Assembly (NCBI GenBank): GCA_021847425.1
Contig: JAJZRF010000031.1
Coordinates: forward strand, 1-38,043
From: Deltaproteobacteria bacterium
GTDB taxonomy: Bacteria; Desulfobacterota; Desulfobulbia; Desulfobulbales; Desulfurivibrionaceae
DNA: 38,043 nucleotides
Direction: 5' to 3'
Shown here piece by piece: positions 3,627 through 35,693 of the stretch. The notes beneath the pieces were generated by a model that ran no database searches, was not told the origin of the DNA, and worked only from the letters and a program-made list of their open reading frames with translations. Numbering within the stretch: the first letter of the stretch is position 1; every line of letters starts with the position of its first letter. A program made the position numbers and the translations under genes.

Positions 3627-3815
3627 TTAGGCGTTGCCTCGGGGGAAGAAATGCAGCACCCCGTCGATCTCCGAGGTGTCGCAGACCCGGCCCGGTCCGA
3701 GCTCGACGAACTGTTCAATGCCTTCCATGTTGATGGAAAACTGCTGGCCGTCCGGCATGTGGTACACAACCGTGCGGACCTTGGTTATATCAATTGGCGA
3801 TCCAGCCACTCTCAT
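3627..3815 (-). CDS. Small conserved-looking protein of unknown function, 62 residues
   Basis: I do not recognise this protein. It starts MRVAGSPIDITKV and ends HFFPRGNA. A beta-rich middle, TVVYHMPDGQQFSINMEG, is followed by a short FVELGPGRVCD turn. It has no signal peptide or membrane segment. The ATG at 3815 is preferred over the one two codons earlier because GGTGAGG lies seven bases before it, a suitable ribosome-binding spacing. The gene lies just downstream of the ftsK terminator and 32 bases upstream of the PHP gene, so the two probably form a short operon. Confidence 0.65.
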   Translation of the reverse strand: MRVAGSPIDITKVRTVVYHMPDGQQFSINMEGIEQFVELGPGRVCDTSEIDGVLHFFPRGNA

Positions 3816-3838
3816 ATGCATTCCTCACCCAAATCCTA

Positions 3839-3866
3839 TAAAAAAACAGAACATCGCTGTTCTGTA
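3839..3866 (-). terminator. Intrinsic terminator downstream of ftsK
   Basis: Minus-strand ACAGAACA (3865-3858) and TGTTCTGT (3853-3846) form an 8-base stem with a GCGA loop, followed directly by a run of seven or more T. It lies about 45 bases after the ftsK stop codon, so it probably ends the transcript that enters from nusB and ftsK. Confidence 0.85.
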
Positions 3867-3910
3867 ATTTAGTCATTCGTTAAATAATTACAAGCTGCCT
3901 GCAAAAAAAA

Positions 3911-6067
3911 TCAATACGACTTTCTGGCCAAAACCTCGCGGGGCTTGGAGCCGTCCGCCGGGCCGACCACCCCTTCCTTTTCCATGAGTTCGATCATCCG
4001 GGCGGCCCGGTTGTAGCCCACCCGCAGCCGCCGCTGCACCATGGAGATGGAGGCTTGACCGGTCTCGCAGACCAGGGCCACGGCCTCGTCATACTTTTCG
4101 TCCGACTCCCCACCCTCGTCGCCCTCGCCGGCCTCGGATTCCTCGGCAAGCCTCAGGACGGTTTCATCATAGCGGACAGCGCCCTGCTCCTTGAGAAAGG
4201 TGACGATCCGCTCGGTTTCCTTTTCCGAGATATAGGCGCCGTGGATGCGCTGGAGCTTGCTGGTGCCCGGCGGCATGAACAGCATGTCGCCTGCGCCCAG
4301 CAGGTGCTCGGCCCCGCTCCCGTCCAGGATGGTGCGGGAATCGATCTTGGAGGAGACCTTGAACGACATCCGGGTGGGGAAGTTGGCCTTGATCAAGCCG
4401 GTGAGCACATCCACCGAGGGCCGCTGGGTGGCGAGAATCAGGTGCATGCCCGCGGCCCTCGCCATCTGGGCCAGCCTGGCCACGGAATCCTCGACCTCGC
4501 GGGAGGAAACCATCATCAGGTCGGCCAGCTCGTCGATGATGATGACGATGAGCGGCAGCTTGTCCGCAGCCTCGGCGTTGTAGCTGGCCAGGCTCTTGAC
4601 CTTGGCCTCCTCCATCAGCTGGTAGCGGCGCTCCATCTCCCGCACCGCCCAGAGCAGGGCCCGGCTCGCCAGCTTGGGGTCCACCACCACCGGATGCAGG
4701 AGGTGGGGAATATCCTCGTAGCAGGAAAGCTCGATCCGCTTGGGGTCCACCAGCAGCAGACGGACCTCCTCGGGCGTGGCTCTAAAGAGAATCGAGCAGA
4801 TGATGGTGTTGACCGCCACGCTCTTGCCCGAGCCGGTTGCCCCGGCGATGAGCAGATGGGGCATCCGCGCGAGATCGGCGATCACCGGATTGCCCACCAC
4901 ATCCATGCCCAGGCCGATGGTGAGCCTGGAGGCGGCCTTCTGGAATTTCTCGTGGGCGAAGATGTCGCGGACATAGACGATATTCCGGGTCGGGTTGGGG
5001 ATCTCGATGCCCAGCGCTGCCTTGCCCGGGATGGAGCCGACGATGCGCACGCTCTCGGCCTTGAGCCCCAGGGCCAGGTCGTCGGCCAGGGCGATGATCT
5101 TGTTGATCTTGACCCCAGGGGCCGGGGAAAACTCGTAGGTGGTGATCACCGGACCGGGGGAGATGCCGACAACCTTGCCCACCACCCCGAAATCATTGAG
5201 CTTTTCTTCCAGTTCAGCGCTGACCGCATAGTAGTACTCGCGGTCCACGACCACCTCGGTGTTTTCCGGCTTATCCAGCAAGGACAACGGCGGAAGCCGG
5301 TATTCTCCGCTGGCCACGGGCAGGAGGCGGAAGGAGTCGTCCTCGACCTCGGCCTCGACCCCAAGCTTTACCGGGGCATGCACCTTGGGGACAACGGGCG
5401 CATCTTCGGACAGGCTTGCCCCGGCCTCTGCCGCCACAAGGGAAGCGGCATCCTCTTTTTTACCCTGCCCGGCAGAGCCCTTGGCCTCGACCGCTTGCCT
5501 GGAGGCCCGGCGGCTGGCCAGAAAATCGCGCAGCCGGGCCCCAAGAGAATACGGGGAAAAACTGCTGATCAGCATCAGGGAGATAACCAGCACCACGAGA
5601 AACAACAGGAAGGACCCTGGACCGCCGAAGAGCCTTTGACCATACTGGGCCAACAGCGTGCCCAGAAAACCGGCAACCGGATAGGTGTGATCAAAAACGG
5701 TGAAAGAGGCCGGAGAGGTGAAACCACTGAGTCCCGAGCTGGCCAGGAGGATTCCGGTGCAGCCGAACACGGCCAGGGGCAGGGTCTCCACGGTGTAATC
5801 CGGGGAAAAAAGGCGGAGGGCGAAAAAAAGCAGCAGCAGAGGCAGCCAGAGCGAGGTGACCCCGAGCAGGTCCATGAGCAGCCCGGCGACGAACCGGCCC
5901 ACTGCTCCGCCCCAGTTGGCGGTGACGATCTGGGGCGACGGCTCCGCCGAGGTGTAGCTGACCAGACAGAGGAGCAGAAAAAGGGCGGCAAAGACCCCGA
6001 ATACGGAAAGTATCTCTCGCCCAAGGGTTGGTTTTTCTTTTTCCTGCCTGTTGTTCCCTGGCGCCAT
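3911..6067 (-). CDS. ftsK: DNA translocase FtsK/SpoIIIE
   Basis: A 718-residue septal DNA pump that moves chromosome arms through the closing division septum. Four or five transmembrane helices occupy roughly residues 20-170. A short charged linker follows (about 180-245), which is far shorter than in E. coli FtsK. The motor domain follows with Walker A GATGSGKS at 409-416 and a Walker B-like LIVIIIDELADLM further on. The C-terminal 65 residues form the gamma winged-helix domain (YDEAVALVCETGQASISMVQRRLRVGYNR begins it), which reads KOPS-type orienting sequences and activates XerCD in relatives. The ATG at 6067 has only a weak GAG upstream. The gene is last in the minus-strand run from nusB and is followed by an intrinsic terminator. 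Confidence 0.97.
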   Translation of the reverse strand: MAPGNNRQEKEKPTLGREILSVFGVFAALFLLLCLVSYTSAEPSPQIVTANWGGAVGRFVAGLLMDLLGVTSLWLPLLLLFFALRLFSPDYTVETLPLAVFGCTGILLASSGLSGFTSPASFTVFDHTYPVAGFLGTLLAQYGQRLFGGPGSFLLFLVVLVISLMLISSFSPYSLGARLRDFLASRRASRQAVEAKGSAGQGKKEDAASLVAAEAGASLSEDAPVVPKVHAPVKLGVEAEVEDDSFRLLPVASGEYRLPPLSLLDKPENTEVVVDREYYYAVSAELEEKLNDFGVVGKVVGISPGPVITTYEFSPAPGVKINKIIALADDLALGLKAESVRIVGSIPGKAALGIEIPNPTRNIVYVRDIFAHEKFQKAASRLTIGLGMDVVGNPVIADLARMPHLLIAGATGSGKSVAVNTIICSILFRATPEEVRLLLVDPKRIELSCYEDIPHLLHPVVVDPKLASRALLWAVREMERRYQLMEEAKVKSLASYNAEAADKLPLIVIIIDELADLMMVSSREVEDSVARLAQMARAAGMHLILATQRPSVDVLTGLIKANFPTRMSFKVSSKIDSRTILDGSGAEHLLGAGDMLFMPPGTSKLQRIHGAYISEKETERIVTFLKEQGAVRYDETVLRLAEESEAGEGDEGGESDEKYDEAVALVCETGQASISMVQRRLRVGYNRAARMIELMEKEGVVGPADGSKPREVLARKSY

Positions 6068-11292: not shown

Positions 11293-12564
11293 TTACCCGT
11301 TGTCCCGTTCCATATCCGGATACAGGGGAAAGGCATCGCACAGAGCGCGAACCTCAAGCCGGATACCGTTCAGAACGTCCTTGTTGCCGCGATTCTCGAT
11401 GGCCCGGTTGATCCAATCGGCAATCTTGGCCATCTCCGGCTCCTTGAGGCCGCGGGTGGTCACGGCCGGCGTGCCGATCCGCACCCCGCTGGTGACAAAG
11501 CGGCTCTGCTGGTCAAAGGGAATGGCGTTTTTGTTCACGGTGAGCCCCGCCTCTTCCAGAGCCTCTTCCGCATCCTTGCCGGTTGCCCCTTTGTTGCTCA
11601 GATCGACCAGGAGCAGATGATTGTCGGTGCCGCCGGAAACAAGGCGGAAACCGTGGCGAACCAGTCCTTCTCCCAAGGCCTGGGCGTTTTTGACCACCTG
11701 GGCCTGATCCTTCTTGAATTTTTCTCCCATGGCCTCCCTGAAAGCCACGGCCTTGGCCGCGATGACATGCACCAAAGGGCCGCCCTGGATGCCGGGGAAG
11801 ATCTTGCTATCGAGCTTCTTGCCGAACTCACCCTTGGCAAGGATCAACCCGCCCCGCGGCCCCCGCAGGGTCTTGTGGGTGGTGGTCGTGACAAAATCGG
11901 CGTAGGGCACCGGCGAGGGATGGACCCCGGCCGCCACCAGCCCGGCGATATGGGCCATGTCCACCATGAACAGGGCGCCGATCTTGTCAGCTATGGCGCG
12001 GAAGCCTGCAAAATCGATAACCCTGGGATAGGCGCTCGCCCCGGCCACGATCATCTTGGGCCTGTGCTCAATGGCAACGCGCTCCACCTCCGCCATGTCG
12101 ATGCGCTCGGTTTCCCGGTTCACCCCGTAGGAAACAAACTTATACAGCTGCCCCGAGAAATTCACCCCTGCCCCGTGGGTGAGATGGCCGCCGTGGGCCA
12201 GATCCATGCCCAGCACCGTGTCTCCCGGCTGCAGCGAGGAAAAATAGACCGCCATATTGGCCTGGCTGCCGGAATGGGGCTGGACATTGGCGTATTCGGC
12301 GCCGAAAATCTTCAAGGCCCGCTCAATGGCCAGGGATTCGATCTGGTCGGCATATTCGCACCCGCCATAGTAGCGCTTGCCAGGATACCCCTCGGCATAT
12401 TTATTGGTAAAAATAGAGCCTTGCGCCTCAAGCACCGCCTCGCTGACAATATTCTCGGAGGCAATCAACTCAAGCTGATTGGACTGCCTTGCCAACTCAT
12501 GGCGGATGGAACAATACACCTCCGGGTCACTCTCTTTCAAATACGACACTGCAGTATCCTTCAT
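11293..12564 (-). CDS. glyA: Serine hydroxymethyltransferase
   Basis: A 423-residue PLP enzyme that interconverts serine and glycine and makes 5,10-methylene-THF. Visible motifs are [37 protein letters not shown] and the PLP-lysine segment [14 protein letters not shown]. The length equals the bacterial norm. The region between this gene and rpiB (12565-12700) carries two hairpins but no gene. Its own promoter, if any, was not identified. Confidence 0.97.
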
Positions 12565-12615
12565 GGTTATTTGTGGGTTAAAAACCGCGCGCCCAATATT
12601 CAGACAAAATAATCA

Positions 12616-12693
12616 CGGCCGAAAAATTACTCCAGGTAATTCCGGCCGCGCGATGAAAAACCGTGCATGGAGGCCTGCAACAGGGAGCAGGCC
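12616..12693. other. Two hairpins in the rpiB-glyA spacer
   Basis: CGGCCG at 12616-12621 pairs with CGGCCG at 12643-12648, with AATTAC/GTAATT pairing inside. GGCCTGC (12672-12678) pairs with GCAGGCC (12687-12693) and is followed on the plus strand by CTTTTT. No plus-strand gene would use the latter as a terminator. On the minus strand they form the leader of glyA and might attenuate or process the rpiB-glyA transcript. Confidence 0.4.
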
Positions 12694-12700
12694 CTTTTTC

Positions 12701-13123
12701 CTAGAACATATCAATCCGGCGCTGGTGCCTGCCCCCGGCAAATTCCGCGCCGATCCAGGCCCGGACTATTTCCGCAGCCAGGCCGAAGCCGATAACCCTG
12801 GCGCCAAGACAGAGCACGTTGGCGTCATTGTGCTCCCGGCTCATCCGCGCGGTAAACAGCTCATTGCACAACCCCGCCCGAATCCCCTCGAAGCGGTTGG
12901 CAACCATGGACATCCCCACCCCTGTGCCGCAGATCAGAATCCCGCGCTCACAATCGCCTTTCTGCACCTGCCTGCAGACAGCCTTGGCAAAATCAGGGTA
13001 ATCGACAGACTCCGTGGAATAGCAGCCCTTGTCGTCCACCACATGCCCCATCTCCTGAAGAAGGGGGACGATTTCAGCCTTCAGGCTGATACCGCCATGA
13101 TCGCAACCGATGGCAATCTTCAC
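12701..13123 (-). CDS. rpiB: Ribose-5-phosphate isomerase B
   Basis: A 140-residue isomerase that interconverts ribose 5-phosphate and ribulose 5-phosphate. The N-terminus MKIAIGCDHGGISLK gives the phosphate-binding CDHGG. GCYSTESVDYPDFA follows, then ICGTGVGMSMVANR, which includes the conserved CGTG loop and its catalytic cysteine. The start is the GTG at 13123, which overlaps the fabF stop codon (GTGA); longer frames would extend far into fabF. Coupling to fabF and proximity to glyA are common in Deltaproteobacteria-like genomes. Confidence 0.95.
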   Translation of the reverse strand: MKIAIGCDHGGISLKAEIVPLLQEMGHVVDDKGCYSTESVDYPDFAKAVCRQVQKGDCERGILICGTGVGMSMVANRFEGIRAGLCNELFTARMSREHNDANVLCLGARVIGFGLAAEIVRAWIGAEFAGGRHQRRIDMF

Positions 13124-14367
13124 GGTTTGCCCTCGTATTGCTTCATAATCAACACCGCATTGGTCCCGCCGAAGCCAAAGGAGTTGGACATGGCCGCCCG
13201 GATCTTCATCTTGCGGGCCTGATTGGGGACATAATCCAGATCGCACTCGGGATCCTGGTTTTCCAGGTTCATGGTCGGCGGGGCAATCTGGTGCTTGATG
13301 GCCAAGGCGGTGAAGACCGCTTCGATGCCTCCTGCTCCGCCCAGCATATGGCCGGTCATGGACTTTGTCGAACTGACGGCCAGCTTGTACGCCTGGTCGC
13401 CGAAAACCGTTTTAATGGCCCGGGTCTCGACCACATCGTTCAACGGGGTCGAGGTGCCATGGGCATTGATATAGTCAAGGTCTTCCGGGCTCATGCCCGC
13501 ATCCTTCAAGGCCATCCGCATGCAGCGGGCCGCGCCGTTGCCATCTTCAGGAGGGGCAGCCATATGGTAGCCGTCGCCGCTCAAGCCGTAGCCGGCAACC
13601 TCGGCATAGATCTTGGCGCCACGGGCCAGGGCATGCTCCAACTCTTCGAGGATGAGCACCCCTGCTCCTTCGGAGATAATAAAGCCGTCCCGGTCCCGGT
13701 CAAAGGGGCGGGAGGCTTTTTCCGGCTGGTCATTACGGGTGGACAGAGCCTTCATCGCATGAAAACCGCCAACCGCCAGAGGACAGATCACCGATTCGCT
13801 GCCGCCGGTAATGGCCACATCACATTCATCGTTGGCAATGGAGCGAAACGCCTCGCCCACCGCATGGGTTCCTGCGGCGCAGGCGGTGGTGAGGGAGAGA
13901 TTCGGCCCCTTGGTGCCGTAAATAATGGAAATCTGCCCGGCGCCCATATTGGGGATAACCATGGGGATGAAGAAGGGGGTAATGCGCTTGGTCCCCTTTT
14001 CCAGGGCCACCTGGTGGTATTTTTCTATGGTGGGCAAGCCGCCGAGCCCACAGCCCATGATGCTGGCGATCCGAGGCGCGTTTTCGTCGGTAATCTGCAG
14101 CCCGGCGTTTCGCAATGCTTCACCGGCCGCCGCAACAGCATACTGAACAAAGAGGTCCAGGTGCTTGGCAACCTTCTTGTCGATATGGTCTTCGACCTGA
14201 AAGTCCTTGACCTCGGCCGCAATGTTGACCCCGACCTCACTGGCGTCGAAGCGGGTAATAGGACCGATACCGCTCTTGCCTGCACACAGAGCGCTCCAGG
14301 TTTTTTCCACGCCTGTCCCCAGGGGGGTAACCAGTCCAACTCCTGTGACCACTACTCTTCTGCCCAC
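13120..14367 (-). CDS. fabF: 3-oxoacyl-ACP synthase II (KAS II)
   Basis: A 415-residue condensing enzyme that elongates acyl-ACP with malonyl-ACP. With GTG at 14367 as the start (MGRRVVVTGVGLVTP; GAGG six bases upstream), the catalytic triad falls at C163 (TACAAGTHAV), H303 (NAHGTSTPLND) and H340 (GHMLGGAGG). These are the same numbers as in E. coli FabF, which supports this start over upstream ones. A spacer of about 117 bases separates it from acpP. The stop codon overlaps the rpiB start. Confidence 0.97.
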   Translation of the reverse strand: MGRRVVVTGVGLVTPLGTGVEKTWSALCAGKSGIGPITRFDASEVGVNIAAEVKDFQVEDHIDKKVAKHLDLFVQYAVAAAGEALRNAGLQITDENAPRIASIMGCGLGGLPTIEKYHQVALEKGTKRITPFFIPMVIPNMGAGQISIIYGTKGPNLSLTTACAAGTHAVGEAFRSIANDECDVAITGGSESVICPLAVGGFHAMKALSTRNDQPEKASRPFDRDRDGFIISEGAGVLILEELEHALARGAKIYAEVAGYGLSGDGYHMAAPPEDGNGAARCMRMALKDAGMSPEDLDYINAHGTSTPLNDVVETRAIKTVFGDQAYKLAVSSTKSMTGHMLGGAGGIEAVFTALAIKHQIAPPTMNLENQDPECDLDYVPNQARKMKIRAAMSNSFGFGGTNAVLIMKQYEGKP

Positions 14368-33103: not shown

Positions 33104-33134
33104 TTGACAGGCGAGGGAAAAAACGTTTTATACT
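33104..33134 (+). promoter_or_regulatory. Promoter of the riboswitch-controlled peptide operon
   Basis: TTGACA at 33104-33109 and a TTTATACT -10 region ending at 33134 (TATACT, 19-base spacer; TTTATA would give 17). Transcription would begin about 10 bases before the riboswitch P1 stem. It faces away from tRNA-Leu. Confidence 0.6.
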
Positions 33135-33145
33135 TGAAAAAATTC

Positions 33146-33345
33146 AAACATTGCCTCATCCCGGAACACGGTGCAAATCCGTGGCGGTCCCGCCGCTGTA
33201 ATCGGGGATGCTGGTCCGCACAGGGAATTTCCCGGCCACTCCCAGAACATTAATGGGGGGAAGGCAGCAGACCAGCAGACGATCCGAAAGCCAGAAGACC
33301 TGATGCTAATGTTTTACGCACGTATTGCTGTTCGTCTGGGTATTC
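33146..33345 (+). promoter_or_regulatory. Cobalamin riboswitch
   Basis: A standard adenosylcobalamin-class aptamer. P1 is AAACATT (33146-33152) with AATGTTT (33308-33314). The conserved core GGTGCAAATCCGTGGCGG and CCGCCGCTGTAATCGG (about 33170-33205) is followed by GGCCACT, then GGGGAAGGC and the B12 box (GCCAGAAGACCTGAT, about 33290-33304). A downstream stem (33315-33340) would form the kissing-loop partner region. The expression platform is the strong terminator at 33358-33397, so cobalamin binding most likely switches the downstream peptide operon off by transcription termination. Confidence 0.93.
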
Positions 33346-33357
33346 TAATGGAAACAG

Positions 33358-33397
33358 AACCCGGAGTGACTCCCATGGGGTTACTCCGGGTTTTTTT
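33358..33397 (+). terminator. Riboswitch expression-platform terminator
   Basis: Two 16-base arms, 33358-33373 and 33377-33392, pair throughout (two G:U pairs) around a CAT loop, followed by seven T. It lies 44 bases after the aptamer P1 and 35 bases before the peptide start codon. Termination here would prevent expression of the peptide and radical SAM genes. Confidence 0.93.
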
Positions 33398-33431
33398 ATG
33401 CACGCAGGTCAACAATCAACAGGAGAACACC

Positions 33432-33560
33432 ATGAAAGCACAAAAAGAGATCATTTCATACCGTCGGCGCTGCAACCTGATAGGCCAGGGCACCGGCCTT
33501 TCCCATTATATTCTGCTCGCCCCCAGCGCCGAGACAACACGAAAGGACGGCAACAAGTAA
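33432..33560 (+). CDS. cbpA: Precursor peptide of a riboswitch-controlled radical SAM system (CbpA-like)
   Basis: A 42-residue peptide. It starts MKAQKEIISYRRRCNLIGQG, continues TGLSHYILLAPSAE and ends TTRKDGNK. AGGAG lies six bases before the ATG. It has one cysteine (C14), a basic RRR patch, a GQGTG turn and a hydrophobic SHYILL segment. The stop codon overlaps the start of the radical SAM gene (TAATG), the usual arrangement of a modified peptide and its enzyme. I recall an NCBI/TIGRFAM pair called CbpA/CbpB with this size, order and riboswitch context, and the match seems good, but I cannot check it. No export signal, leader-peptidase site or transporter gene is visible, so the modified product and its site of action are unknown. 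Confidence 0.8.
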   Translation: MKAQKEIISYRRRCNLIGQGTGLSHYILLAPSAETTRKDGNK

Positions 33561-34951
33561 TGGCACAGACACACAAACAGGCGATGGCGACCATTTTCGC
33601 CAACACCGGCCAGGGCCCAAATTTTTCCGTGCTGGAAATCGGCGACCCTGACCGGGTTGCGGTTGTCGAAGCAGATACGGCCTACTGGGCCTTGATCGAC
33701 CGGCATAATCTCCCCCAGGCCCTGGCTGGCTCCATGACCCAAGAGTTCACCGCCCGCGCCCCGGAATTTCAGGCGGAGATGAATCACCTGCGTGCGGGCT
33801 TGCAGCTCTCCGCCGCCTACCTGAACCCCACCGAACGCTGCAATCTGAACTGCAGCTACTGCTACCTCCCCGAAGAAATGCGCAAAAACGGCATCGACAT
33901 GGGGGAGGAAAAAGTGATGCTCGCCCTCGAAAAACTACTGCAACACTTCCGGAAGATTCTCCCGGAAGGGGTAAAACCGCAGCTGATCTTTCACGGCAGC
34001 GAGCCCATGGTCGCCAGGGATGCCGTATTTGCCGCAATTTCCCGTTTTAAGGATGACTTCCATTTCGGCATCCAGACAAACGCCACTCTGCTTGACGACA
34101 CGGCAATCAACTTTTTAAGAACCCACCGGGTCGGCATCGGTCTGTCCCTGGATGCCCCCACTGCGGAGGTCGCCAACCGCACCAGGAAAAACTGGCAGGG
34201 CAACGGATATTTCGACACCGTTGTTTCGGTGATCAAAAAACTCGTTGATTATCCGGCCCTGAATGTCATTACCACCGTAACTCAAGCCAACGTGCACACC
34301 CTGACCGAGATGGTGGACTTTTATCATGGGCTGGGGGTGCGGGTGGTCATGCTCAATCCGGTTCGCTGCACACGTCAAGGCGGAATGGATCTGAAACCGG
34401 ACAACCATGTTCTGGCCGAGGCTTTCTTCAAGGCGCTGGATCGCTCTTTTGAACTTTTTGAACAAACCGGCAGAAAACTTGTCATCGCCAACTTCGCCAA
34501 TGTCCTGGCCGGAGTTATCGGTCCGACCGGCCGCAGGCTGATGTGCGACATCTCTCCCTGCGGCGGCGGTCGTTGTTTCTTTGCCGTTTCCGCGGACGGC
34601 GAGGTCGTGCCGTGCAGTGAATTCATCGGGATGAACGAGTTTTCCGGAGGAAATATCTTTTGTGACGACCCTGCCGATATTCTTGCCAGCAAGCCCTTCC
34701 AGGAGGTAACGAGCCGGAAAGTAGAAAAAATTCAGCCCTGCGCAGGATGCGCCATCCGGCATTTCTGCGGGGCGCCATGCCCGGCCGAGATCTACAAGGT
34801 GTCCGGAGACATCAATGCGCCGAGCCCTTACTGCAGCTTCTTTGAGGAACAGGTGCGCCATGCCTTCCGGATAATCTCCCAACAACGGGAGGATGCGTAT
34901 CTCTGGGACAGCTGGCGGACCGAAACGGAAATGTCCTATTGCTGGAAGTAA
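33560..34951 (+). CDS. cbpB: Peptide-modifying radical SAM enzyme with SPASM-type C-terminus (CbpB-like)
   Basis: A 463-residue enzyme. An N-terminal region of about 85 residues (possible peptide-recognition domain) precedes the radical SAM motif C94-x3-C98-x2-C101 (CNLNCSYCYLPEE), which binds the SAM-ligating [4Fe-4S] cluster. HGSEPM follows at about 147. The C-terminal SPASM-like part has cysteines in CDISPCGGGRCFFAVSADGEVVPCSEF and CAGCAIRHFCGAPCPAEIYK, then PYCSFF, enough for two auxiliary clusters. Such enzymes form thioether or carbon-carbon crosslinks in peptides. The start overlaps the peptide stop codon (TAATG). The gene is followed by an intrinsic terminator, so the peptide and enzyme form a closed two-gene operon under cobalamin control. 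Confidence 0.92.
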   Translation: MAQTHKQAMATIFANTGQGPNFSVLEIGDPDRVAVVEADTAYWALIDRHNLPQALAGSMTQEFTARAPEFQAEMNHLRAGLQLSAAYLNPTERCNLNCSYCYLPEEMRKNGIDMGEEKVMLALEKLLQHFRKILPEGVKPQLIFHGSEPMVARDAVFAAISRFKDDFHFGIQTNATLLDDTAINFLRTHRVGIGLSLDAPTAEVANRTRKNWQGNGYFDTVVSVIKKLVDYPALNVITTVTQANVHTLTEMVDFYHGLGVRVVMLNPVRCTRQGGMDLKPDNHVLAEAFFKALDRSFELFEQTGRKLVIANFANVLAGVIGPTGRRLMCDISPCGGGRCFFAVSADGEVVPCSEFIGMNEFSGGNIFCDDPADILASKPFQEVTSRKVEKIQPCAGCAIRHFCGAPCPAEIYKVSGDINAPSPYCSFFEEQVRHAFRIISQQREDAYLWDSWRTETEMSYCWK

Positions 34952-34964
34952 CTTCTTGCCGCTC

Positions 34965-34999
34965 AAACCAGCCGGGGCTCTTCCCCGGCTGGTTTTTTT
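34965..34999 (+). terminator. Intrinsic terminator of the peptide operon
   Basis: AAACCAGCCGGGG (34965-34977) and CCCCGGCTGGTTT (34983-34995) form a perfect 13-base stem with a CTCTT loop, followed by a T-run to 34999. It starts 14 bases after the radical SAM stop codon and separates that operon from the flavoprotein gene. Confidence 0.95.
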
Positions 35000-35114: not shown

Positions 35115-35693
35115 ATGAAGGTCGTCGCTTTTAACGGAAGCGCCCGCAAGGGCGGGAATACCGCAAAATTGCTGAATACCACCTTGGAAGAGCTGGCTTT
35201 GCAAGGAATCGAAACAGAGCTGGTGGAGCTGTCAGGCCAACCGATCTCCGGCTGCACCGCCTGCTATCAGTGTTTCAAGAACAAAGACAATCGTTGCGCC
35301 GTGGAAAAGGACATCATCAACGATTGTCTTGCCAAGATGATCGAGGCGGATGGCATCCTCCTGGGTTCCCCCACCTACTTCGCCGATGTCTCCGCAGGGA
35401 TGAAGGCCCTGATCGAGCGGTGCGGCATGGTTTCCCGGGCCAACGGCGATCTGTTCAGACGCAAGGCCGGGGCCGGGGTGGTCGCGGCCCGTCGGGCTGG
35501 GGCCTATCAGGTGTTCAACTCCCTCAACGCCTTTTTTCTGATCGGCCAGATGATCGTGGTGGGCTCCTCTTACTGGAACATCGGCATGGGCAGAGAACCA
35601 GGCGATGTGGCCAACGACGAGGAAGGCATGAAAACCATGCGCGACCTGGGACGCAACATGGCCTGGCTTCTCCGGAAAACCAACGCGGAATAG
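35115..35693 (+). CDS. Iron-sulfur flavoprotein / NADPH-dependent FMN reductase family
   Basis: A 192-residue flavodoxin-like protein. GSARKGGNT (8-16) is the FMN-phosphate loop, and GSPTYFADVSAGMKALIER near 78-96 is the second FMN loop. C47, C50, C53 and C61 give the compact CxxCxxCx7C motif that holds the [4Fe-4S] cluster in archaeal/clostridial Isf proteins. Such proteins move electrons between ferredoxin-like donors and small acceptors. AAGGAG precedes the ATG at six bases. It lies on the plus strand right after the terminator of the radical SAM operon and converges on recO (stop codons four bases apart). A functional link to the radical SAM enzyme as an electron donor is only a guess. 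Confidence 0.88.
   Translation: MKVVAFNGSARKGGNTAKLLNTTLEELALQGIETELVELSGQPISGCTACYQCFKNKDNRCAVEKDIINDCLAKMIEADGILLGSPTYFADVSAGMKALIERCGMVSRANGDLFRRKAGAGVVAARRAGAYQVFNSLNAFFLIGQMIVVGSSYWNIGMGREPGDVANDEEGMKTMRDLGRNMAWLLRKTNAE

What the first reader, a model, noticed from the sequence alone, without database searches (positions are those of the whole stretch)
33104..34999. Cobalamin-riboswitch-controlled peptide plus radical SAM enzyme
A compact unit of promoter, B12 riboswitch with terminator, 42-residue peptide, overlapping SPASM-type radical SAM gene and strong terminator stands on the opposite strand from nearly everything around it. Cobalamin shortage should switch on production of a modified peptide. 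This suggests a role in cobalt or cobalamin acquisition, or in replacing a B12-dependent function, such as a metal-binding peptide. It matches the CbpA/CbpB pair as I recall it; the product and role are, to my knowledge, not established.
Basis: partly seen in the sequence, partly recalled or inferred. Interest (0 to 1): 0.8.

Follow-up and report, generated by a model that had tools for sequence, protein, structure and literature searches.

The report
B12-switched modified-peptide gene pair
A bacterium makes a tiny peptide and an enzyme predicted to modify it under the control of a vitamin B12 sensor; in some relatives the pair sits inside the vitamin B12 gene cluster beside the cobalt-inserting enzyme and cobalt importer, so it probably helps the cell obtain or handle cobalt for making B12.

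Summary
In detail: a cobalamin riboswitch (RF00174, 74.3 bits), a terminator hairpin, a 42-aa peptide, an overlapping SPASM radical-SAM gene and a second terminator lie at 33104-34999. The enzyme is CbpB (TIGR04163, 671.6 bits, cut-off 375). The peptide is CbpA-like by position and core, but scores 25.9 against a cut-off of 35.

Family evidence: CbpA precedes CbpB in 35 of 35 full-length loci (window plus phylum scan) and 16 of 16 archaeal loci examined. 33 of the 35 have their own riboswitch; the other two lie inside cobalamin gene clusters with a riboswitch upstream, in the order cbiA-cbiC-cbpA-cbpB-cbiX-cbiM. CbiD (corrin synthesis) occurs in 35 of 36 CbpB genomes but 161 of 359 others. 54 of 55 distinct peptides have exactly one Cys.

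Best reading: at low cobalamin a Cys/His peptide is modified and aids cobalt handling for the chelatase (0.45). Gene order and co-occurrence support the pathway; chemistry and cobalt binding are inferred.

Against: four of 16 further genomes show no corrin marker; the archaeal link is weak; a plasmid copy has no riboswitch nearby. The pair is a named family; I found no paper on its function.

The parts
33104..33134 (+). promoter-like hexamers TTGACA (33104-33109) and TATACT (33129-33134), 19 nt apart
   Evidence: read; not reported by the consensus scan; weak
33163..33299 (+). cobalamin riboswitch aptamer (model positions 47-167 of 189)
   Evidence: RF00174 74.3 bits, E 1.1e-16
33357..33397 (+). 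intrinsic-terminator hairpin plus T run between riboswitch and cbpA
   Evidence: read; -29.0 kcal/mol; the same kind of element in 39 of 40 riboswitch loci
33420..33425 (+). ribosome-binding-site-like CAGGAG upstream of cbpA
   Evidence: read
33432..33560 (+). cbpA-like precursor peptide, 42 aa, core YRRRC...GTGLSHYILL
   Evidence: TIGR04164 25.9 bits, below cut-off 35; core conserved in 55 distinct peptides
33560..34951 (+). cbpB, radical SAM/SPASM peptide-modifying enzyme, 463 aa
   Evidence: TIGR04163 671.6 bits, cut-off 375; PF04055 and PF13186 over cut-off; model pLDDT 83.5, nearest solved fold CteB 5why/5wgg
34965..34999 (+). terminator after cbpB
   Evidence: 13-pair stem 34965-34995 and T's

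Best explanation
A cobalamin-sensing riboswitch with an intrinsic terminator keeps the unit off while cobalamin is plentiful. When cobalamin runs low, cbpA and cbpB are transcribed and translated together. CbpB, a SPASM radical SAM enzyme whose nearest solved fold is CteB, binds the short peptide and modifies it at or near its single Cys and/or the conserved GLSHY segment. The product stays in the cell as a small Cys/His ligand that helps the cell hold or hand over cobalt (Co2+) to the class II cobaltochelatase (CbiK or CbiX) at the sirohydrochlorin branch point of de novo cobalamin synthesis. Shown by sequence: the riboswitch, terminator, gene overlap, enzyme family, peptide conservation, location in cbi clusters of two relatives and co-occurrence with corrin synthesis. 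Inferred: off/on logic in this organism, that modification occurs and where, that the product stays inside, cobalt binding, and the chelatase as the receiver.
For: Riboswitch directly upstream, same strand, in 33 of 35 full-length CbpB loci (window plus phylum scan) and in 7 of 9 named-contig loci scanned (not in L048, cut off, nor L049, archaeal). The two exceptions, G326 and G140, have cbpAB inside a same-strand cobalamin gene cluster between cbiC and cbiX-cbiM, with a riboswitch upstream of each cluster. In G140 cbpB's stop overlaps a possible start of cbiX (ATGA); in G326 cbiX starts 6 nt after cbpB's stop. In G354 the next unit on the same strand is riboswitch-cbiK-FecCD permease; in G060 cbpB faces a cbi cluster. 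CbiD in 35 of 36 CbpB+ against 161 of 359 CbpB- genomes (Fisher p 8.8e-11; by genus 25 of 25 against 106 of 221, p 8.7e-8). A class II chelatase in 35 of 36 (CbiK 29; strong CbiX in the other 6; G390 neither), so both chelatase types occur; CbiK was not searched in CbpB- genomes, so this is no contrast. Terminator-like hairpin between riboswitch and cbpA in 39 of 40 loci. One Cys in 54 of 55 distinct peptides, GLxH in 55 of 55, Cys-His spacing 8-11. No conserved transporter, protease or regulator beside the pair: the largest neighbour cluster spans 9 of 46 loci and 6 of 21 archaeal loci.
Against: Only 4 of 34 fetched phylum-scan neighbourhoods hold cbi genes near cbpAB by tblastn with a few queries, and in two of those only as separate units; a fifth (L060) has a SUMT-type gene about 4 kb away that could be siroheme-related and is not counted. 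Of 16 further genomes reached through named contigs (one the same genome as G352, one the archaeon) 4 (G396, G401, G402, G410) show neither CbiD nor CbiC nor CbiK, though their completeness is not told. In Archaeoglobales CbiD is in 19 of 28 CbpB+ and 13 of 29 CbpB- genomes (p 0.11), and none of 15 archaeal loci has an Rfam match. Methylovirgula plasmid pHY1 carries cbpAB with no Rfam match in the 10.8 kb scanned. CbiM does not separate CbpB+ (34 of 36) from chosen CbpB- CbiD+ genomes (38 of 44). The Fisher tests ignore kinship. One Cys and one His are a thin metal site; nothing here shows cobalt binding.
Confidence: 0.45

Rival explanations
1. The modified peptide assists another step of corrin or lower-ligand synthesis (a small cofactor or redox aid for a Cbi enzyme), not cobalt handling.
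For: Same co-occurrence with CbiD and same cluster location, where cbiC is as close a neighbour as cbiX.
Against: In both clusters the next genes downstream are the chelatase and the cobalt importer, and in G354 a cbiK unit is next. CbiC and CbiD are present in nearly all carriers (34 and 35 of 36), so neither of those steps is missing; other steps were not tested.
Confidence: 0.25
2. The product is exported and scavenges cobalt or corrinoids from outside (a cobalophore-like peptide).
For: Cobalamin riboswitch; a TonB receptor heads the G140 cluster and FecCD-type permeases lie near in G354 and, by eye, in the own genome's cobalamin cluster.
Against: No exporter or leader protease conserved beside the pair; peptides are about 26-45 aa (start codons chosen by me) with no evident signal peptide (inspection); also present in archaea, which lack an outer membrane of the TonB kind (general knowledge).
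Confidence: 0.13
3. The product substitutes for, or supports an alternative to, a B12-dependent function during shortage.
For: Cobalamin riboswitches are known to control B12-independent isozymes (PMC3766115, passages read).
Against: In the phylum sample CbpB is almost confined to genomes that make corrins (35 of 36) and in two of them is inside the biosynthesis cluster; a bypass would be expected at least as often in non-makers (inference). B12-independent isozymes were not tested, and four named-contig genomes without corrin markers leave room for it.
Confidence: 0.1
4. The modified peptide is a regulator or signal of cobalamin status.
For: Small conserved peptide behind a cobalamin riboswitch.
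Against: No conserved regulator or receptor gene nearby; the own genome and G354 already have other riboswitches for cobalamin genes.
Confidence: 0.05

Closest known systems
CbpA/CbpB (NCBIfam TIGR04164 / TIGR04163)
   Same: Enzyme 671.6 bits against cut-off 375; peptide upstream with the YRxxC...GLSHY core.
   Different: The peptide scores 25.9 against cut-off 35; 4 of 9 other CbpB-linked peptides tested also fall below it, so the short model is narrow.
CteB, the SCIFF thioether maturase (PDB 5wgg, 5why)
   Same: Best sequence-profile match in the PDB (E 5e-38) and best fold match (E 1.6e-18, TM 0.68-0.76); N-terminal strands and helices ahead of the radical SAM part. That these entries are CteB is recalled; the listing names thioether formation in sactipeptide biosynthesis.
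   Different: 20-21% identity; SCIFF peptides have six Cys (model name rSAM_six_Cys), CbpA has one.
PapB ranthipeptide maturase (NF047865)
   Same: Second-best NCBIfam model, 136 bits.
   Different: Far below its cut-off of 340; CbpA has only one conserved Cys, whereas PapB links Cys to Asp or Glu (abstract of PMC9413430, seen in the listing).
Cobalamin riboswitch RF00174 upstream of B12 and cobalt genes
   Same: Same aptamer family, with a terminator downstream.
   Different: Controls a peptide-enzyme pair; PMC3766115 names biosynthesis, B12 transport, cobalt transport and isozymes as its classes (passages).

Membership tests
CbpB (TIGR04163) | score over curated cut-off 375 | tested here: met
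   671.6 bits
CbpB (TIGR04163) | radical SAM CxxxCxxC and SPASM cysteines | tested here: met
   C94, C98, C101 and C329, C334, C352, C394, C397, C403, C407, C425 invariant in 45 aligned sequences; PF04055 and PF13186 over cut-off
CbpA (TIGR04164) | score over curated cut-off 35 | tested here: not met
   25.9 bits; 4 of 9 CbpB-linked peptides from other loci also below
CbpA (TIGR04164) | short ORF upstream of CbpB with the conserved core | tested here: met
   window; 35 of 35 full-length bacterial loci, window included
CbpA (TIGR04164) | is modified by CbpB | not testable with these tools
   needs co-expression and mass spectrometry
Cobalamin riboswitch (RF00174) | score over gathering 31.5 | tested here: met
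   74.3 bits
Cobalamin riboswitch (RF00174) | binds cobalamin and switches a terminator | not testable with these tools
   terminator present; switching not shown
Ranthipeptide/sactipeptide (thioether) maturases | thioether formed on Cys | not testable with these tools
   fold like CteB; chemistry unknown

The most novel reading that the evidence does not exclude
CbpA is the precursor of a ribosomally made, post-translationally modified cobalt-delivery peptide: a Cys/His metallochaperone, shared by Desulfobacterota-type bacteria and Archaeoglobales, that steers Co2+ rather than Fe2+ to the chelatase at the sirohydrochlorin branch point when cobalamin is short. I know of no peptide-based cobalt chaperone for a cobaltochelatase (from memory).
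Probability: 0.3. Interest if true: 0.85.

Novelty: new member of a known kind. Interest (0 to 1): 0.58.

Why it matters
CbpA/CbpB is a named family, but ten searches of the open-licence library gave no paper on its function (the listings of 57 and 67 were capped, and most subscription papers are not held). The gene order cbiC-cbpA-cbpB-cbiX-cbiM and the near-restriction to corrin-making bacteria turn an open function into a specific question: is the peptide a cobalt-handling factor for the chelatase? If so, it would be a new use of a modified peptide (metal delivery inside a vitamin pathway) and would help explain how anaerobes that share sirohydrochlorin between siroheme, heme and cobalamin favour cobalt.

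Tried and rejected
Pseudo-substrate idea: CbpB's N-terminal N-x-G-x-GP motif looked like CbpA's core; hhalign found no similarity, so rejected. Read-through fold of the Geoglobus pair (CbpA, stop read as Q, CbpB) to see docking: mean pLDDT 57.2, peptide blocks about 22-31, uninformative. CbiM as a marker of CbpB genomes: no contrast, 34 of 36 against 38 of 44 chosen CbpB- CbiD+ genomes. CbiX as the partner chelatase: only 6 of 36 strong, 29 have CbiK. More cluster cases in the order of G140: CbpB in 1 of 17 genomes. Neighbour clustering for a conserved partner gene: the largest other cluster spans 9 of 46 loci and 6 of 21. The gene-order rows printed there lack 14 of 46 and 2 of 21 loci, because my ORF filter kept long antisense frames or my motif missed the enzyme; the cluster counts cover all loci. 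In one search three enzymes (L016, L043, L103) were not picked up; their peptides come. The peptides were found with the pattern G[LIVM][STA]H[YF] (first a stricter one, that missed L010, L011 and L022, found by eye), so G and H are fixed by the search; a locus without the core would have shown as a miss, and none did. Papers: PMC9062424, PMC4289311, PMC9600662, PMC3766115 and PMC3403914 were searched by passage only. 'Cbp' was a search term only in the first two, where it matched nothing but DOI strings; in the other three no passage tied a radical SAM peptide enzyme to cobalamin.

Full report
What is in the window. At 33104-34999 (+) there are, in order: promoter-like hexamers 19 nt apart, a cobalamin riboswitch (RF00174, 74.3 bits), a hairpin with a T run, a 42-aa ORF, an overlapping 463-aa radical SAM/SPASM gene (TAATG junction) and a terminator. 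The promoter was not reported by the consensus scan. The enzyme is CbpB by NCBIfam (TIGR04163, 671.6 bits, cut-off 375; next model PapB at 136 bits). The peptide is matched only by TIGR04164 CbpA, at 25.9 bits, below the cut-off of 35. The short model is narrow: of nine CbpB-linked peptides from other loci, five pass and four do not. The genome is a 2.70-Mb draft, 81% complete, with one CbpB over the cut-off. Named near relatives are Deltaproteobacteria/Desulfobulbaceae MAGs, eight of them at 90-93% identity.

How conserved is the unit. Of 395 genomes sampled from the phylum, own genome included, 36 have CbpB over the cut-off. These give 35 full-length loci, the window included, and two partial matches that I set aside (G060:C108, G042). 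A CbpA-type peptide precedes CbpB in 35 of 35. Riboswitch RF00174 lies upstream on the same strand in 33 of 35. Of nine named-contig loci scanned, seven have it; L048, cut off by the contig end, and the archaeal L049 do not; six others (L037, L038, L040-L042, L047) were not scanned. A terminator-like hairpin with a T run lies between riboswitch and cbpA in 39 of 40 riboswitch loci (33 plus these seven; L013 and L046 are one genome); the miss, L025, had a weak hairpin under my length limit. Among 55 distinct peptides from 57 loci, 54 have exactly one Cys; the other is a frameshifted copy (L093). GLxH is found in all 55, Tyr follows in 53 and Phe in 2, and Cys-His spacing is 8-11; G and H were part of the search pattern, but no locus lacked the core.

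Archaea. The order of Geoglobus (locus L049) has CbpB over cut-off in 28 of 57 genomes. In the 16 loci where I looked for the peptide (L090-L104 and L049) it is there in all, with GGLTHY and a constant C-terminal [ST]PF (L093 frameshifted). None of L090-L104 has an Rfam match. So the pair is older or more mobile than its riboswitch. One further carrier, plasmid pHY1 of Methylovirgula sp. HY1, has annotated cbpA and cbpB (51% identity to the window's enzyme) with no Rfam match in 10.8 kb around it.

Where it sits. Usually alone: in 46 neighbourhoods the largest cluster of neighbour genes spans 9 loci, most of them the window's close relatives or ClpX-like ATPases, and in 21 archaeal ones 6 loci. 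The exceptions inform. The two loci without their own riboswitch lie inside cobalamin gene clusters. In G140 the same-strand order is TonB receptor, aminotransferase/CbiA/GATase fusion, CobA, CbiA, CbiC, cbpA, cbpB, CbiX, CbiM, a 125-aa ORF, ThiC family, CbiQ, CbiO (by eye), CbiD, with a riboswitch before the TonB gene (50.5 bits) and cbpB's stop overlapping a possible start of cbiX. In G326 the order CbiA, CbiC, cbpA, cbpB, CbiX, CbiM... CbiD recurs, with cbiX starting 6 nt after cbpB and a riboswitch (105.8 bits) some 10 kb upstream on the same strand. That each is one transcript is inferred. In G354 a riboswitch-cbiK-FecCD unit follows cbpAB on the same strand. In G060 cbpB faces a cbi cluster. 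That is 4 of 34 phylum-scan neighbourhoods searched by tblastn with proteins of three of these loci, so diverged cbi genes could be missed; L060 has a SUMT-type gene about 4 kb off, not counted. In the own genome the pair is not near the cobalamin cluster, which is on contig 93: two riboswitches, then a CbiK with a signal-peptide-like start, a FecCD-like permease, ATPase, binding protein, CbiA, CbiC, CbiD and methyltransferases (CbiK, CbiC and the riboswitches by model; the others by eye).

Co-occurrence. In the same 395 genomes CbiD is present in 35 of 36 CbpB+ and 161 of 359 CbpB- genomes (p 8.8e-11; genera 25 of 25 against 106 of 221; genomes at least 90% complete and at most 5% contaminated 33 of 33 against 143 of 294). 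These tests ignore kinship, but the carriers span 13 families. The exception, G005, is 79% complete. CbiC is in 34 of 36. A class II chelatase is in 35 of 36: CbiK in 29, strong CbiX in six others, neither in G390; CbiK was not searched in CbpB- genomes. CbiM gives no contrast. CbiD is not sufficient: 161 CbiD genomes lack CbpB. Results against: of 16 genomes reached through named contigs (G406 is G352 again, G395 is the archaeon, completeness not told), CbiD is in 11, CbiC in 11 (one a fragment), either in 12; G396, G401, G402 and G410 have neither, nor CbiK. The own genome keeps one CbiK on contig 93 with CbiC, and another on contig 11; if these relatives are arranged alike, one missing contig would not explain the gap. 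In Archaeoglobales CbiD is in 19 of 28 CbpB+ and 13 of 29 CbpB- genomes, p 0.11.

Enzyme. Forty-five aligned CbpB sequences share the three radical SAM cysteines and eight further cysteines in the SPASM part. The model (pLDDT 83.5) has three N-terminal strands and helices ahead of the barrel, and its best fold matches are 5why/5wgg (CteB, thioether formation), then TigE, anSME and ChlB (the sequence profile agrees on the first). This fits a peptide-modifying enzyme but does not tell the chemistry.

Reading. A cobalamin riboswitch, position before chelatase and importer in two relatives, near-restriction to corrin makers in the bacteria sampled, occurrence with either chelatase type, and a peptide whose fixed residues include one Cys and one His point to cobalt handling for de novo cobalamin synthesis. 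Steps shown are sequence and distribution; modification, cobalt binding, site of action and the switch itself are inferred. Sharing of sirohydrochlorin between siroheme, heme and cobalamin in such anaerobes is recalled knowledge, used only as rationale. A replacement of B12-dependent functions is less likely because most carriers make corrins; a secreted cobalophore is less likely because no export or protease gene was found travelling with the pair.

Verdict. A well-formed, conserved member of a named but functionally open family. The new content is the context evidence that narrows its role.

Noticed in passing
L127 (NZ_CP073765.1 plasmid pHY1, Methylovirgula sp. HY1) 11795-13374: cbpA-cbpB on an alphaproteobacterial plasmid, close to pqqADE and a Crp/Fnr regulator, with no Rfam match in 10.8 kb around it.
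   Followed up: partly
L090-L104, L049: Archaeal CbpA peptides end in a constant [ST]PF that the bacterial ones read lack, while the archaeal enzymes lack the bacterial N-terminal N-x-G-x-GP stretch.
   Followed up: partly
L093 (G452:C10): The CbpA ORF is split between two frames (frameshift in genome or assembly) before an intact CbpB.
   Followed up: no
L008 (G005:C179), 1237-1281 -: cbpA ends 414 nt before cbpB, and an Acido-Lenti-1 RNA match (46.2 bits) lies in between on the other strand.
   Followed up: no
L125 (G000:C93:58000-72788), 3636-4847 -: CbiD of the own genome is matched by Pfam in two pieces within one open frame; a proline/glycine-rich stretch that reads like an inserted repeat lies between. 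A similar split match is seen in G399 and G400.
   Followed up: no
window 35115-35693 +: NADPH-dependent FMN reductase downstream of the cbpB terminator; its cluster is seen in 8 of 46 neighbourhoods, the window and close relatives.
   Followed up: partly
L068, L071 (G392, G080): A second radical SAM protein of about 400 aa follows a ClpX-like ATPase (by eye) a little upstream of the riboswitch-cbpAB unit.
   Followed up: no
L083 (G354:C156) about 2150-2900: Repetitive stretch between cbpB and the riboswitch-cbiK unit, seen as repeated peptide stretches in the listed frames.
   Followed up: no
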